The position numbers and the translations under genes are program-made. Under the pieces are notes generated by a model, which had not been told where the DNA came from, ran no database searches, and worked only from the letters and a program-made list of their open reading frames with translations. Positions 8,570 through 44,400 of a stretch of 64,000 nt of DNA are shown here, one piece after another; positions within the stretch are counted from its first letter, which is position 1; every line of letters begins with the position of its first letter. Origin of the DNA: Pseudomonadales bacterium (GTDB lineage Bacteria > Pseudomonadota > Gammaproteobacteria > Pseudomonadales > Azotimanducaceae); assembly GCA_030749725.1 (NCBI GenBank), contig JASMJM010000066.1, forward strand, positions 1-64,000, read 5' to 3'.

Positions 8570-8599
8570 TCTGACTCTCCTTATTTTCAGCCACCAGCT

Positions 8600-8641
8600 G
8601 CTAGTCGCTCGCCGCTAGTTGCTAGTTGCTAATTGCTAGTT
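8600..8641. repeat. Six tandem 7-bp units at the ftsA end
   Basis: Units read on the plus strand as GCTAGTC, GCTCGCC, GCTAGTT, GCTAGTT, GCTAATT, GCTAGTT. The ftsA stop codon (TAG, 8629-8631) lies inside the array, so the last codons of ftsA are made of repeat units while the rest fills the ftsA-ftsZ gap. Copy number could vary by slippage. Confidence 0.85.
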
Positions 8642-26657: not shown

Positions 26658-27974
26658 TTAATCCTCGTTCTGCCCGGCGGCGCGATACTCTGCCGACAAC
26701 GCATGGGCTATCAGGCCCTCCTGCCTTGCCAAGGTAGCCGCAATGCCACCCAATTTGGCAGCTCCCTTGGGCGAACACTTGATCAGTGAACTGCGTTTCT
26801 GGAAGTCATACACCCCAAGGGGCGAGGAGAATCTCGCAGTACCGGATGTGGGTAATACATGGCTGGGGCCAGCCACATAGTCACCAATCGATTCTGCGCT
26901 GTAGGATCCCACGAAAACAGCGCCGGCGTGTCGCACCTGCGGCAGCAGCGAATCCGGATCAGCTACCGAGAGTTCCAGGTGCTCAGGTGCAATCTCATTG
27001 GCGAGGGCAATGGCTTCCTGCAGATCAGTCACCTTGACTATTGCACCTCGCCTTTGCAGTGATTGAGCGATGATGTTGGACCTCTCCATCTCTTCCAATC
27101 GGACTTCCATGCGTTGCGTGACGCTGGACAGCAGTTCGCCATCCGGTGATATCAGAATCGCCTGTGCGTCTTCATCGTGTTCCGCCTGTGCAAACAGATC
27201 CATAACGACCCAGTCGGGATTGGCACTGCCGTCTGCCACCACTACCACCTCTGAGGGTCCGGCTATGATATCGATACCCACCTCGCCAAAGACCAACCGT
27301 TTTGCGGTCGCGACATAGATATTGCCGGGACCGACGATCTTATCCACCTTGGGCACCGTCTCTGTGCCATAGCTCAAAGCTGCTATGGCCTGTGCCCCGC
27401 CGATGGTAAACAGCTGCCGCACACCGGATATCGACGCGGCCGCCAACACCACTTCACTGATTTCGCCTGCGGGACTCGGAACAACTGCGATGATCTCCTC
27501 CACGCCCGCCACCTGCGCCGGTACGGCACTCATCAGGACAGACGAGGGATAGCTGGCCTTGCCTCCCGGAATGTAGATTCCCACCCTCTGCAGGGGATTA
27601 ACTAGCTGCCCAAGTTCAGTTCCATCCTCATCGGTATAGCTCCAGGATTCCTCCTTTTGTCTCGAATGGAACGAGTAAATACGCCTGGCTGCCTGTTCCA
27701 ATGCCGCCAGGACCTCTGCATCGATTTTCCCCCTGGCTTCCTTCAGTCGCTCGCTGCCAATGGTCAACTCAGGCATGCTGGTCACTACCGTACCGTCCAA
27801 ACGATTGGTTAAAGCCACCAGGGCATCATCACCCTTGTCACGAATCTGGGCCAGGATATCAACGACAACGGCCACGACCTCACGTTCCTGTTTGGACTTC
27901 CTGCCAAGCAATCGCTGGAAGTCAGCCCGAAAACCGGCATCCTCACTGTCAAGATAATTGGTAACCTGTTGCAT
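26658..27974 (-). CDS. hisD: HisD, histidinol dehydrogenase
   Basis: Zinc enzyme that oxidises L-histidinol to L-histidine in two NAD-dependent steps. About 438 residues from the ATG at MQQVTNYLDSED; the frame stays open to 28037, but the extra 21 residues do not resemble the family. Landmarks: YIPGGKASYPSSVLM, IVGPGNIYVATAKRLVFG, GPSEVVVVAD, AEHDEDAQ and EHLELSV near the catalytic His. It follows murA directly; hisG, the usual gene between them, and hisC downstream are absent. Confidence 0.96.
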   Translation of the reverse strand: MQQVTNYLDSEDAGFRADFQRLLGRKSKQEREVVAVVVDILAQIRDKGDDALVALTNRLDGTVVTSMPELTIGSERLKEARGKIDAEVLAALEQAARRIYSFHSRQKEESWSYTDEDGTELGQLVNPLQRVGIYIPGGKASYPSSVLMSAVPAQVAGVEEIIAVVPSPAGEISEVVLAAASISGVRQLFTIGGAQAIAALSYGTETVPKVDKIVGPGNIYVATAKRLVFGEVGIDIIAGPSEVVVVADGSANPDWVVMDLFAQAEHDEDAQAILISPDGELLSSVTQRMEVRLEEMERSNIIAQSLQRRGAIVKVTDLQEAIALANEIAPEHLELSVADPDSLLPQVRHAGAVFVGSYSAESIGDYVAGPSHVLPTSGTARFSSPLGVYDFQKRSSLIKCSPKGAAKLGGIAATLARQEGLIAHALSAEYRAAGQNED

Positions 27975-28037
27975 GGCTGACCTCCCCGGGTGTTTCGAGG
28001 ACCTGGCTGTCAAAACCCGGACAATGCTGCAACCCAA

Positions 28038-29315
<1,278 letters not shown>

Positions 29316-29362
29316 TTATCTTTGAATGACTTCTGCGTCCGTTGCTGCCATCGGCGCGACAT

Positions 29363-29599
29363 TTAGGTTGCCCCCTTCTCAGCAGGTGTCAAGGTGGTCA
29401 TCATTACCGCATGTATTTCGCCGCTTTTGATCTTCTCATTCAAGTGACCATACACCATCTGCTGTCTTTTCACTTTCGTCAGGCCCTCAAAAACGTCACC
29501 GACAATAGTCACTTTATAGTGCCCCTCTTCTCCTTCTACCTCAACGTCGCATTCTTTGAACGGATCAGCTAACAGATCTCTAATCTCATTTGAATTCAT
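29363..29599 (-). CDS. ibaG: IbaG, BolA-family protein
   Basis: 78 residues with the BolA class II-like fold: VEGEEGHYKVTIVGDVFEGLTKVKRQQMVYGHLNEKIKSGEIHAV (seen in the translation in shorter pieces: GHYKVTIV, KRQQMVYGHL, SGEIHAV). It has the conserved C-terminal His but Cys only at CDVEV. BolA proteins bind monothiol glutaredoxins and Fe-S clusters; IbaG is acid-responsive in E. coli. Its first 15 codons and leader are duplicated three times upstream (29633-29850). Confidence 0.92.
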   Translation of the reverse strand: MNSNEIRDLLADPFKECDVEVEGEEGHYKVTIVGDVFEGLTKVKRQQMVYGHLNEKIKSGEIHAVMMTTLTPAEKGAT

Positions 29600-29632
29600 A
29601 ATTTAACACCCAAAGGGCAGCCGTTGGCTGCT

Positions 29633-29683
29633 TTAATCTTTGAAACCGTCATCTAACAGATCTTTGATGTCGTTTGAAGTCAT
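29633..29683 (-). CDS. Putative 16-residue micro-ORF A, paralog of IbaG N-terminus
   Basis: Reads MTSNDIKDLLDDGFKD then TAA; compare IbaG MNSNEIRDLLADPFKE. It has its own ATG in the same context (GGGTGTTAAATT-ATG) as ibaG. It could be a leader peptide or a relic of duplication; translation is not shown. Confidence 0.45.
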   Translation of the reverse strand: MTSNDIKDLLDDGFKD

Positions 29684-29715
29684 AATTTAACACCCAAAGG
29701 GCAGCCGTTGGCTGC

Positions 29716-29766
29716 TCATTCTTTGAAACCGTCATCTAACAGATCTTTAATCTCATTTGAATTCAT
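29716..29766 (-). CDS. Putative 16-residue micro-ORF B
   Basis: Reads MNSNEIKDLLDDGFKE then TGA. It is the copy closest to IbaG at the protein level (13 of 16 positions identical to MNSNEIRDLLADPFKE). The stop falls immediately after the residue corresponding to Glu16 of IbaG. Confidence 0.45.
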   Translation of the reverse strand: MNSNEIKDLLDDGFKE

Positions 29767-29799
29767 AATTTAACACCCAAAGGGCAGCCGTTGGCTGCT

Positions 29800-29850
29800 T
29801 CAATTCTTGAAACCGTTATCCAACAGTTCCTTTATTTCATCTGAGTTCAT
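29800..29850 (-). CDS. Putative 16-residue micro-ORF C
   Basis: Reads MNSDEIKELLDNGFKN then TGA. Relative to micro-ORF B it has about six synonymous third-position changes (for example AAT/AAC, GAG/GAA, ATT/ATA, AAA/AAG, TTA/TTG) against four amino-acid changes, three of them conservative. This is suggestive of selection on the peptide, but the sample is small. Confidence 0.45.
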   Translation of the reverse strand: MNSDEIKELLDNGFKN

Positions 29851-29969
29851 AATTCAGTACCCCAAAGTGCAGCTGTCAGCTTCCAGCGACCAAAACTCGA
29901 TCCTCAAAACCCAACTCGATACTGGTAGCTGTTAACTAAGCCAGCAGCCAGAGGCTGTTAGCTGGACCC

Positions 29970-30272
29970 TCAACCGAAGTTGAGTATTTCTCCTATATCA
30001 GAGATTCCGGCGATCTTTCTCAGTCGTTCAGGTGGGTTTAGATACACAATCTGCTTGTCCGCCGCTTCCGCCAGGCGCAGCCAGGATATCAACAGTGCAA
30101 GCCCGGCACTACCCTCAAAGAGAGCGTCTGACAGGTCGACTCTGCTCTCATCCGGCCCACCTGTTATCAGTAAAGCGCCTTTGTCTCTTAAACGAGGCAC
30201 GCTCGACAGGGACAGTGTACCGGTCACTTTAAGGTCACCCCGCCCGAGCTCAAGGATCTGCGCGCTATCCAT
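29970..30272 (-). CDS. mlaB: MlaB, STAS-domain subunit of the Mla lipid transporter
   Basis: 100 residues with a STAS fold (LKVTGTLSLSSVPRLRDKG, VDLSDALFEGSAGLALLISWLRLA with the conserved Ser/Gly loop). MlaB binds MlaF in the cytoplasm and stabilises the MlaFEDB complex that moves phospholipids between inner membrane and periplasm. Last gene of mlaFEDCB, 6 bp after mlaC. Confidence 0.9.
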   Translation of the reverse strand: MDSAQILELGRGDLKVTGTLSLSSVPRLRDKGALLITGGPDESRVDLSDALFEGSAGLALLISWLRLAEAADKQIVYLNPPERLRKIAGISDIGEILNFG

Positions 30273-30278
30273 CGACCA

Positions 30279-30935
30279 CTACTCTGCCTTTGCCTCGGGA
30301 TTCCAGCCATCGATCACCTTATCGATATCTCCCTTCTGTGCTGCCATGTCCTGCCTGAATTTATCTCTGAACTGCAATCCAAGATTGATGCCGTTTACTT
30401 TAACATTGATCAATTTCCACTGGCCGTCAGTCAACGCGGTCGTGTAATCCACCGGATACAAAGTGCCATTCTTGCTGTGCACGACCATCTTGACTACCGC
30501 TTGATCCGCCCTCTTTGGCTTGCCTTTTCTGGGGGGCAGGATCGCGATGCGCTCATTGTCGAATTCAACCAACGCCTTCGCGTAGGTCTTGATCAGACCA
30601 TCTTTAAACACCAGTTTGAATTCTTCCTTCTGTGCGGCAGTCGCGTTTCTATAGTATTTTGCCATAACCCTGCGAGAAAACCTGTTCAGGTCGATGTAGG
30701 GAACTATGGCGCTCTCCACCTCATAGTAAACTCTGAGCGGCTCCTTTGCATAAAGGTGTTTCACCTCGGCCAGCTTTTGCAGCAGATGGTCAGTTGCATT
30801 CTGTATCGTTTCGTGAGCGTTGATGCCAGCAGGCGTACCTGCTGCAGGCGCCCCTGCAGCCTGTAAAGCCACGAAAACCAAAGAAAACGTCAAGAGAACC
30901 AGACTATTCAGTTCTCGCCAATCTATTCTCCTCAT
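30279..30935 (-). CDS. mlaC: MlaC, periplasmic phospholipid carrier
   Basis: 218 residues with a signal peptide (LLTFSLVFVALQAAGAPAAG) and the Tol-Tgt2/MlaC domain: VYYEVESAIVPYIDLNRFSRRVM, YYRNATAAQKEEFKLVFKDGLIKTY and the INLGLQFRDKFR end. It shuttles phospholipid between MlaA at the outer membrane and MlaFEDB. Confidence 0.95.
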   Translation of the reverse strand: MRRIDWRELNSLVLLTFSLVFVALQAAGAPAAGTPAGINAHETIQNATDHLLQKLAEVKHLYAKEPLRVYYEVESAIVPYIDLNRFSRRVMAKYYRNATAAQKEEFKLVFKDGLIKTYAKALVEFDNERIAILPPRKGKPKRADQAVVKMVVHSKNGTLYPVDYTTALTDGQWKLINVKVNGINLGLQFRDKFRQDMAAQKGDIDKVIDGWNPEAKAE

Positions 30936-30944
30936 ACGTGTATC

Positions 30945-31403
30945 TCACTCATCAAATGCTTTCAGGAGGAACTGACCGATCAACTCCTCCAAAACCAGTG
31001 CCGATTGTGTGTCGGTAATCTCGTCACCATCTTCTAACAACTCCTCGTCCGCGCCGAGCACCAGTCCGATGTATTTACCTCCCAGAAGCCCCTCCGTCAA
31101 AATGGCTGCCGTCGTATCACTGGTCAGTTGATCGACGCTTGCGTTCATCTCTATTCGGACCAGAGCAGTAAAGTCTTCCTGATCCAGCTTGATTTCAGCA
31201 ACTTTGCCAACCACCACACCTGCCACGCTAACCTTCGCCCGGATGGCGAGTCCACCTATATTTTCAAACCTGGTGTAGATGCTATAGCTGTTGGTGGCAG
31301 CGCCAACATCGAACCCACTGACTTTGACCGCAAGAACTATCAACGAAAAGATGCCCGCCAGCATGAACGCACCTACGCTGATTTCCACAGTTCTCATCTG
31401 CAT
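30945..31403 (-). CDS. mlaD: MlaD, MCE-domain substrate-binding subunit
   Basis: 152 residues: one N-terminal membrane segment (SVGAFMLAGIFSLIVLAVKVS) and a single MCE domain (YSIYTRFENIGGLAIRAKVSVAGVVVGKVAEI), forming the hexameric ring on MlaE. The ILTEGLLGGKYIGLV segment is the pore-loop region. Alternative ATG at 31397. Confidence 0.96.
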   Translation of the reverse strand: MQMRTVEISVGAFMLAGIFSLIVLAVKVSGFDVGAATNSYSIYTRFENIGGLAIRAKVSVAGVVVGKVAEIKLDQEDFTALVRIEMNASVDQLTSDTTAAILTEGLLGGKYIGLVLGADEELLEDGDEITDTQSALVLEELIGQFLLKAFDE

Positions 31404-41487: not shown

Positions 41488-44400
41488 CTACCTGGGATCG
41501 ACCGTTTCCGGTACCGGTTCCGGGGCCGGTTCCGGGACCGTTTCCGGTACCGGTTCCACTACCGCCGTATCAAGTTCGTCCCGTTTTCGTACAGAGTTAT
41601 CAAAAACAGAGATGAACTCAACTACCGGCTCATCAATCGAGCCACTCACTTTGTACTTGGCGCTACTGAACTGCTTGATCGGGTCTTCGAGTAAGATTTT
41701 TTGTGCGAGGAATACGCCTGCGCCAAACAGAGGACCGGAGGCGATGGCGGCGAACCAGGGCAAATTCCTGCTCACCGGCAAGGTAACGATCATATCACTG
41801 TCCACCTGCCTGGTGAGCAGATTTATCTCGCCACCAACTTTCAGAATACTGCCGGGACTGTCTATTTCGATGGGTTCGACCACTTTGATCACGCCATCTT
41901 CCAGGAAAGCCTTACCTTTTATCTCGTCAAACTGAAAACCACTGTCGACGATGTCTGAAAAATCGAATCTGAAACGCCGCGCAATGGAAGCGAAGTCAAA
42001 GATTCCCAAGAGGCGTAGTGCGCCCGACCCGGGTTGTACTTGTACAAAGCGACCCTCTCCCGTTTCCAGGTCCACCGAACCCGTGACCGACCTATAGGAG
42101 AGCATGGCGGGGGAACCCAGCCAATCAAACTGTGCACTGAACCTCACATCCTGACTCTCAACGCTGGATGCAAATCCCCACTCCCGCAGTACTTTAGCCA
42201 AGTCACTGGAATTCAGGAAACCTTCGAAATGCGATCGGTGTTCCTGCTCAGTCTTGATCCAGTTGATCGATGATTGCTCGCCGTCCTGAGTCGACTTGAT
42301 ATTCAGTCCTTTCACCTCGGCAGAGAGACTGCTTATCAGCGCGCCATCGTCGGTAGGTGTAAACACAAATGACCAGGAACCGTAGTCTTCACCGTCCCAG
42401 CTGAATGAATCCGTGCTGAACTCCAGCGCACCCAACAGTTCAGGCTCGAGCTGCAGCAATGGATCCTCTTTATCCCCTTTGTCTTCATCTGATGCGATGC
42501 GGATATAGTCAAGGTCCACGATGAGGGGTTGATCACCCTCATCAGGCACTTTGAATCGACCGCCGAGAATTGGATTCTTAATATCGATTTCCCAGAGGCG
42601 GTCTCCTCTCCTTAACTGGCTGCTAACGTCGAGCAATTCGCTGCCAAACGCATGTAGCTTGCCGATTTCAAGATCGATGAGTTCAACGCTCCTCGACATC
42701 TCGGCGTCGAGGGACACATCGGACAAAGCCAGGTATTTGCTCTGCAGGTCATCGGTCAAGGACTGCCATTGCGCCAGTTTCACCTCGTCGAGGGCCCCCG
42801 CAACAGTCACGCCACTCGATTTCGGTTCTCCCGCCTCGCCTTCACCGAAGTTGACCGAACCTGCGACTAACTTCGCTTCATTCAGGACGAGTATGGCCCT
42901 GAAGTCGTCGCCAAAGTCCACCTCCACCCTCTGAACAGGATCGCCGAACGTGTTGAGGTAACGAAAGTCCCTGGCCTCGTTCGCTGATTTTCCGAGCGGC
43001 AACGGAAGATCGACGATTACTCCCTCAAGACGTGATCTGGCTTCGAGACTACTGATATCAAGGTCATTACCGAATGGGATTCTCAGCGTTGCGGAATAGT
43101 CGAATTCACCCGTTGCCCTTGTCAGTATCGTCTGTTCGGACCAGTCATACAGATCCTGGACCGTCGTTGTGCCGTCAGCATTGATCGTGACCTCGCCAAA
43201 CTCTCCCATCCGAGTAGTGATGGTTCCAGCTAACGGTTTGCCAAACAGGCGTGCCGTAAATCCGTCAGTATTCAGCCCGGAACGATCAGAATACGACAGC
43301 TCCCCTTTGATATCCTGCAAGAGCACATCATACGAGGGCATCAGTATGTCGTTCCCGTTCATCACTATGTTGATCAGGCTCTTTGGTCCGGTTCTGCCTT
43401 CGTCGGGCATTTCTGCGGTCTCACCAATCGGTATCACCAGGTCTGCCGTCACATTGATGTCACCTTCAGCCTGCCAATCCTGAGCTAGATTATTGACCTC
43501 ATCCGCGAGAGGCGTCTCATTGAGAAAACGCACACCATCGGATGCGCTACCAGTCATCGTGCCTAAGATTTCGACCACCGAAGTCTTGCCGTCCTGATCG
43601 AATGGAACAGTCACATCAGCCGTGGTTATCTGGCTGTCATAGATTCTGGCGACCATGCCCGTTCCTGCAACCCCCCAATTACCCATATAGACTTTGCCAA
43701 CCATTTCGCTTAGCTGTGGCCAGCTCGACTGATAGTCGAGAATGCCGTCTGCCACATTGAAATAAAGCTCATAGGATTTCTCTATGCTGGGTGCTTGCTT
43801 GCTCAGTGTGCCGTGAAACATCAAGCCACTATCGATGACATGGCCGGACACCACAGCCCTGTCAAGCCAGTCATAGGCATCCTCAGAAATGGTAAAGGGA
43901 AGGTAGCTGCGCTTCTCACTGAGATCAGCATGGGTAATGCCAATGATCAATCCCCAGGTCTGCGCACGACGGTCTCGCGGCAAATTCACGTGAAAGCTGC
44001 CTTTTACCGTCATGTCATTTTGAGTCAAGGCAACTAAATCGCTGCTTAACTTGAGCAGACCAGGTACGTATTCGTACTTCACTCTGCCCATTACTGAATC
44101 GAAATTCCAATGGTCTTTGAAGACGGTTGCAAACCTCATTCTAAGATCCTGGTTGTGAATATCGATCCAGCCGTTCTTGAGACCAGCAGAGACGAACCCA
44201 GTCAAGGAAGACAACGCTGGTGATCCCAGGTATGCGCTGGTCTTACCGTTGCTTATGCCGGCGACCAACCGTGCGTCAACCGGGTCCTCATCCAGGAGAA
44301 GCTTGATATGCACCTGTTCAAGCACACCTTGGAACTGCGTCGCCTCAATGCGAGCGCGAGCGCGCTCCGCTAGCAGAGTCGAGTTCTCACTCAGTCTGAG

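What the first reader, a model, noticed from the sequence alone, without database searches (positions are those of the whole stretch)
29600..29850. Three tandem micro-ORFs that copy the start of ibaG
Upstream of ibaG the leader plus first codons are repeated three times with a period near 83 bp. Each copy is a separate 16-codon frame with its own ATG and a stop at the same place: MTSNDIKDLLDDGFKD, MNSNEIKDLLDDGFKE, MNSDEIKELLDNGFKN. Between the last two, about six of ten differences are synonymous. Each stop is followed by a hairpin (GCAGCCAACGGCTGC; partial before the farthest copy) and the same pre-ATG context as ibaG. This could be a translational-coupling or attenuation leader for a BolA-family gene, or peptides that compete with the IbaG N-terminus. 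Duplication decay is the null explanation.
Basis: partly seen in the sequence, partly recalled or inferred. Interest (0 to 1): 0.75.

Follow-up and report, generated by a model that had tools for sequence, protein, structure and literature searches.

The report
Three duplicated start stubs before ibaG
In one bacterial genome the ribosome-binding site and first 16 codons of a small gene (ibaG) have been copied three times in a row in front of the gene, each copy ending in a stop codon; the copies have changed more like protein-coding sequence than like dead debris, but no relative examined shares them, so whether they do anything is still open.

Summary
On the minus strand, three 16-codon frames (ATGs at 29850, 29766, 29683) precede ibaG (29599-29363; BolA family), spaced 84, 83 and 84 nt. 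The 32 nt before the ATG are identical in copies 2, 3 and ibaG, diverged before copy 1.

Origin: partial tandem duplication of ibaG's own initiation region. The shared stop is best read as one inherited junction (TG|A where ibaG reads TGC), not convergence.

Relatives cannot settle function: the held genus contains only this genome, the best ibaG matches are 56-57% identical, and 0 of 93 relatives' loci examined shows such a copy.

Within the array changes look coding-like: 9 of 17 substitutions are synonymous, 12 of 17 at third positions. A dead-copy model that lets ibaG share the divergence reaches this in 0.2-0.7% of runs (0.4-1.7% without the ambiguous last codons). All 7 replaced residues occur in relatives' IbaG. 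The test is small and post hoc; recombination between alleles could mimic it.

Reinitiation-range spacing and an intrinsic terminator were tested and not met. I lean slightly towards a translated, cis-acting train of short upstream frames (0.45) over inert debris (0.40). Interest is moderate.

The parts
29800..29850 (-). micro-ORF c1, 16 codons + TGA, farthest from ibaG, most diverged copy
29716..29766 (-). micro-ORF c2, 16 codons + TGA
29633..29683 (-). micro-ORF c3, 16 codons + TAA
29363..29599 (-). ibaG, 78 aa, BolA family; its first 16 codons are the source of the copies
   Evidence: Pfam BolA E=1.3e-15
29851..29886 (-). leader L1 before c1: diverged copy, weakened hairpin AGCTGACAGCT
29767..29799 (-). 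leader L2: 33 nt stop-to-ATG spacer with hairpin 29784-29798 and GGGTG Shine-Dalgarno-like stretch
29684..29715 (-). leader L3: 32 nt spacer, hairpin 29701-29715
29600..29632 (-). leader L4: 33 nt spacer and ibaG's own ribosome-binding region, hairpin 29617-29631
29970..30272 (-). mlaB-like STAS gene upstream; 370 nt gap to ibaG that holds the array
28038..29306 (-). murA (EPSP_synthase Pfam family; named murA from its place next to ibaG) downstream of ibaG

Best explanation
A tandem duplication copied the initiation region of ibaG (hairpin leader, Shine-Dalgarno region, ATG and 16 codons) to a place just upstream. Its junction changed ...GAATGC... to ...GAATGA..., so the upstream copy became a 16-codon frame with a stop. 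Later unequal exchange raised the array to three stubs plus the gene. That the units are tandem copies is shown; the single junction and the later exchange are inferred from the alignment. The next steps are inferred too. If the mRNA runs through, c2 and c3 initiate about as well as ibaG, because their 32 nt before the ATG are letter-identical. The frames have been kept as coding frames, and they act in cis as a train of short upstream frames that captures ribosomes and tunes ibaG translation. A ribosome stopped on a stub covers the 5' arm of the hairpin, and the fold left over pairs the next Shine-Dalgarno stretch, so translation of one stub would hold back the next frame. The peptides themselves are probably by-products.
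For: Identical leaders L2=L3=L4 (32 nt) and 53- and 37-nt exact shared stretches. Between c1, c3 and c2: 17 substitutions, 12 at third positions, 9 synonymous (the stop change TGA to TAA counted), with start, frame and stop kept. A dead-copy model in which ibaG, under selection, shares the c1 divergence for equal time gives combined P=0.003-0.007 (synonymous) and 0.002-0.003 (third position). A constrained model (omega 0.2) reaches the observed values in 29% and 11% of runs. With only codons 1-14 used, P=0.006-0.017 and 0.004-0.005. All 7 amino-acid replacements in c1 and c3 are residues seen in at least 2 of 53 relatives' IbaG at that position; 46% of random single-base replacements would be. 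The leader is invariant (0 of 35 columns with the ATG) while codons 2-16 of c2/c3/ibaG vary in 11 of 45, Fisher P=0.002. With the first 10 nt after the stop masked, L2, L3 and L4 each fold so that GGGUG is paired.
Against: No relative examined has the array: 0 of 93 other loci, and the 420-base query matched 1 of 206 family genomes, its own. Seventeen substitutions and one post hoc locus are little data, and c3 alone is not clearly significant (synonymous P=0.04-0.12, 0.17-0.23). In the simplest no-selection simulation both frames stay open in 5-9% of runs, so openness alone is weak evidence. The 11 of 45 variable columns include 5 changes crowded into three ibaG codons; c2 against c3 alone gives Fisher P=0.06. 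The mosaic of c3 (c2-like middle, own 5' end) points to recombination, which could import changes made in full-length ibaG alleles. Stop-to-ATG distance is 32-33 nt. The Shine-Dalgarno stretch is paired in both predicted states, and the alternative hairpin is not formed in L1, so no clean switch is predicted. No transcript or ribosome data exist here.
Confidence: 0.45

Rival explanations
1. Inert duplication debris. The array is a by-product of slippage or unequal exchange; the stubs may be translated by accident but are not selected. The coding-like pattern is chance, or was acquired while these stretches were still part of full-length ibaG alleles that later recombined into the array.
For: Seen in one genome only. 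Junctions that fit a single origin; mosaic copies and homogenised inner leaders with diverged edges, the usual look of a tandem array. Few substitutions; c3 alone not clearly significant.
Against: Third-position and synonymous bias unlikely for dead copies. c1 looks old (its leader has 8 substitutions and 1 indel in 33 columns, counted by eye on the alignment), yet it is still an open frame. Arrays with long identical stretches tend to collapse (general knowledge).
Confidence: 0.4
2. An array of DNA or RNA sites: the selected part is the leader unit (palindrome GCAGCCAACGGCTGC plus ribosome-binding region), repeated to bind a regulator or set mRNA stability. The frames ride along.
For: The leader is the invariant part (0 of 35 columns against 11 of 45). 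3 of the 4 genomic places of the palindrome pattern are here. L1 keeps one stem pair by a two-sided change (C-G to T-A, by eye).
Against: Does not explain the codon-position pattern. Another L1 stem pair is lost (by eye). No Rfam match, no promoter-like or terminator-like site on the minus strand. Inner-array homogenisation also gives identical leaders.
Confidence: 0.12
3. Assembly or strain-mixture artefact of a draft genome.
For: 173-contig draft with estimated contamination 3.04.
Against: The copies differ from each other; the longest exact repeat is 53 nt, shorter than ordinary reads; the locus is inside a 70 kb contig, and ibaG and the array each have one match in the genome. No read data were available.
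Confidence: 0.03

Closest known systems
Partial tandem gene duplication (5' end of a gene)
   Same: Head-to-tail copies of one contiguous segment, junctions that fit one origin, diverged edges
   Different: Three copies that all remain open 16-codon frames, two of them with ibaG's exact pre-ATG region; coding-like divergence
Bacterial regulatory upstream ORFs / leader peptides (for example ermCL; described in passages of PMC10219788 that I saw)
   Same: Short frames with their own start, upstream of a gene and on the same strand, hairpins near the start region
   Different: Peptides are copies of the gene's own N-terminus; three in series; not found in the relatives examined; no terminator on the gene's strand; stalling not tested
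Leader genes that raise translation by reinitiation (hypothesis of PMC4833913; abstract and passages seen)
   Same: Short frame before a structural gene
   Different: That hypothesis rests on a stop-to-start peak near 10-13 bp; here the gaps are 32-33 nt

Membership tests
Partial tandem duplication of a gene start | Head-to-tail copies colinear with the gene's 5' region | tested here: met
Partial tandem duplication of a gene start | Common junction inherited by the copies | tested here: inconclusive
   the three junctions differ by a few bases; a single ancestor is the simplest reading, done by eye
Regulatory upstream ORF / leader peptide | Short frame with its own start and ribosome-binding region upstream of the gene | tested here: met
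   by sequence only, the transcript is not known
Regulatory upstream ORF / leader peptide | Conserved in related species | tested here: not met
   0 of 93 relatives' loci; 1 of 206 family genomes, its own, with the array DNA; but no close relative is held
Regulatory upstream ORF / leader peptide | Codon-level constraint on the frame | tested here: inconclusive
   combined P 0.002-0.007 and 0.004-0.017 against dead copies; post hoc, 17 substitutions
Regulatory upstream ORF / leader peptide | Translated, and its translation changes expression of the gene | not testable with these tools
   needs ribosome profiling or reporters
Transcription attenuator | Intrinsic terminator between leader frame and gene, on the gene's strand | tested here: not met
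   3 terminator-like sites in 28900-31000, all on the + strand (consensus scan only)
Reinitiation leader gene | Stop-to-start distance of about 10-13 nt | tested here: not met
   33, 32, 33 nt (coordinates; distance peak from PMC4833913)
Known structured RNA | Match to an Rfam family | tested here: not met
   0 matches at E up to 1 in 29300-30300

The most novel reading that the evidence does not exclude
A gene has built its own translational governor by serial duplication of its start: three translated self-copies of the IbaG N-terminus, kept by selection as frames, that compete with or gate ribosomes for the full-length gene. The array would show a regulatory upstream-ORF train being born from the gene it controls.
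Probability: 0.3. Interest if true: 0.65.

Novelty: new variant of a known kind. Interest (0 to 1): 0.42.

Why it matters
If the stubs are translated and selected, partial duplication of a gene's start is a direct route to new regulatory upstream frames in bacteria, and the array keeps a record of that route. If they are inert, the case is a caution: a shared stop and open frames can follow from one junction.

Tried and rejected
Genome-wide element: rejected; the palindrome pattern has 4 places in the genome, 3 here, and the leader with up to 3 mismatches has 3 sites, all here. Known RNA: none. Attenuator terminator on the ibaG strand: none. Same array or self-copy in relatives: none found. 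In one search (54 loci) three peptide scores were above the best of their own 30 shuffles: the window's own locus (64) and two relatives (L015 25 against 24, L024 27 against 22); the relatives' stretches run to 40 residues or more (printed cut at 40), score low and are taken as chance. Global fold of 430 nt: z=-1.99, 3 of 100 shuffles as low; not used as evidence. Literature (search listings; outline and passages of PMC4833913, passages of PMC6747721 and PMC10219788): I saw no description of upstream frames made of copies of the downstream gene's start, but that is these seven searches only, and one search returned no paper at all.

Limits of the counts: the 93 loci are 53 plus 40. Four of the 53 hold under 700 nt upstream (L006, L032, L035, L038). 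Some start codons were chosen by rule and may be wrong. One search was run at E up to 1e-10 and found 95 of 206 family genomes (own included); I examined loci of many of these, not all. The amino-acid columns come from a MAFFT alignment of the 53 relatives only.

Full report
What is there. The window's minus strand carries an ABC-transporter ATPase gene in the place of mlaF, then mlaE, mlaD, mlaC and an mlaB-like STAS gene, then ibaG, an EPSP-synthase-family gene in the place of murA, and a histidinol dehydrogenase gene (mlaF, mlaB and murA are named from their place, the Pfam models matched are general). PMC6747721 (passages seen) describes the same neighbourhood, ibaG downstream of mlaBCDEF and upstream of murA, in V. 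cholerae and E. coli. Between the mlaB stop and the ibaG start lie 370 nt. They contain three units, each a leader followed by ATG, 15 more codons and a stop, and the fourth unit is ibaG itself.

Is it more than chance. Yes. The self-similarity score of the ibaG start with its upstream region is 133; the other 61 scored ORFs of the window reach at most 28, 53 relatives' ibaG loci at most 25 and 40 more at most 24.

How it arose. The units align over their whole length. The inner leaders L2, L3 and L4 are identical for 32 nt and L1 is diverged (8 substitutions and one indel in 33 columns, counted by eye). At the end of each stub the sequence runs TTCAA[A]GAA[T]TGA or close to it and then enters the leader, where ibaG continues GAATGC. 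The three junctions can be derived from one ancestor, TTCAAAGAATGAAGCAGCC, by one to three changes each. This is inference by eye, but it makes the common stop an inherited accident of one junction. The copies are mosaic: L2-c2 shares 53 nt exactly with L4-ibaG, while c2 and c3 share a 29 nt stretch in the middle. Tandem Repeats Finder scores the 167-nt dimer above the 84-nt unit. More than one round of exchange is likely.

Do the copies evolve as frames. c1 against c2: 11 substitutions at codon positions 3, 0, 8. c3 against c2: 6 with the stop included, at positions 0, 2, 4. Synonymous: 6 and 3. With substitutions placed at random on both copies, combined P is 0.0006 for third positions and 0.00006-0.0025 for synonymous count, depending on transition bias. 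That null is unfair to decay, because ibaG itself, under selection, accounts for part of the c1 distance. I therefore simulated a dead c1 against a constrained gene with equal time: combined P 0.0033-0.007 (synonymous) and 0.0017-0.0027 (third position). With constrained stubs the observed values come up in 29% and 11% of runs. Leaving out the last codons, where indels make the alignment uncertain, gives 0.0064-0.0174 and 0.0044-0.0054. c3 alone is not clearly significant. The seven amino-acid replacements in c1 and c3 are all residues found at that position in at least two of 53 relatives' IbaG proteins, while 46% of random replacements would be; by multiplication this is about 0.004 under independence.

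Against this: 17 substitutions, one locus picked because it looked odd, and a mosaic array. If stretches of c1 or c3 were brought in from full-length ibaG alleles by recombination, the same pattern would appear with no selection on the stubs. There is no close relative to separate the two: the genus as held contains only this genome, the best ibaG matches are 56-57% identical, and the array DNA matches 1 of 206 family genomes, its own. The only named relatives found by the genome-contig scan are 47% and 41% identical.

How it would work. c2, c3 and ibaG have letter-identical 32-nt upstream regions, so on a common transcript they should start at similar rates; a difference could come only from context. 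Predicted opening energies of the start region are 8.4, 10.0 and 8.3 kcal/mol for c2, c3 and ibaG, and 5.9 for c1. The gap from stop to next ATG is 32-33 nt. A ribosome on the stop would cover the 5' arm of the GCAGCC/GGCTGC hairpin. With the first 10 nt after the stop masked, each inner leader refolds so that GGGUG, the Shine-Dalgarno-like stretch, is paired. The stretch is also paired, with early codons of its own frame, in the unmasked prediction, so this is a brake in both states and not a clean switch; L1 does not form the alternative. Close-range reinitiation is unlikely at this distance (PMC4833913 reports a peak at 10-13 bp in proteobacteria, less pronounced in gammaproteobacteria; passages). 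Attenuation by an intrinsic terminator is not supported. My preferred reading is thus a train of translated short upstream frames that captures ribosomes ahead of ibaG, at 0.45, against inert debris at 0.40.

An oddity worth keeping: at position 13 the stubs keep Gly, which 20 of 53 relatives have, while ibaG itself has Pro, which 0 of 53 have. At that position the stubs look more like a typical IbaG N-terminus than the gene does.

Verdict. Real, unusual, seen in one genome only, with suggestive but not conclusive signs that the stubs were kept as coding frames. Origin is ordinary (partial tandem duplication); the function, if any, would be a new variant of the upstream-ORF theme.

Noticed in passing
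29363-29599 (-), codons 11-13: ibaG itself reads ADP where the three stubs read DDG or DNG; Pro at position 13 occurs in 0 of 53 relatives, Gly in 20. At this place the gene, not the copies, carries the odd residues.
   Followed up: partly
29871-29963 (-): Three near-copies of AGCTRACAGC and a CAGCCTCTGGCTG palindrome lie in the mlaB-ibaG gap, upstream of c1 and in its leader; the array's hairpin may derive from this kind of sequence.
   Followed up: partly
8599-8641: Tandem array of a TGCTAGT heptamer, 6.1 copies.
   Followed up: no
41500-41564: GACCGGTTCCGG repeat, 12- and 24-nt periods.
   Followed up: no
26658-28037 (-): Histidinol dehydrogenase follows murA directly; hisG, which I recall (no call) between murA and hisD in some relatives, lies on another contig (G000:C67:8445-8927).
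   Followed up: partly
29699-29717 (+): Terminator-like hairpin with T-rich tail on the strand opposite to ibaG, inside the array; it could act only on a transcript of that strand.
   Followed up: no
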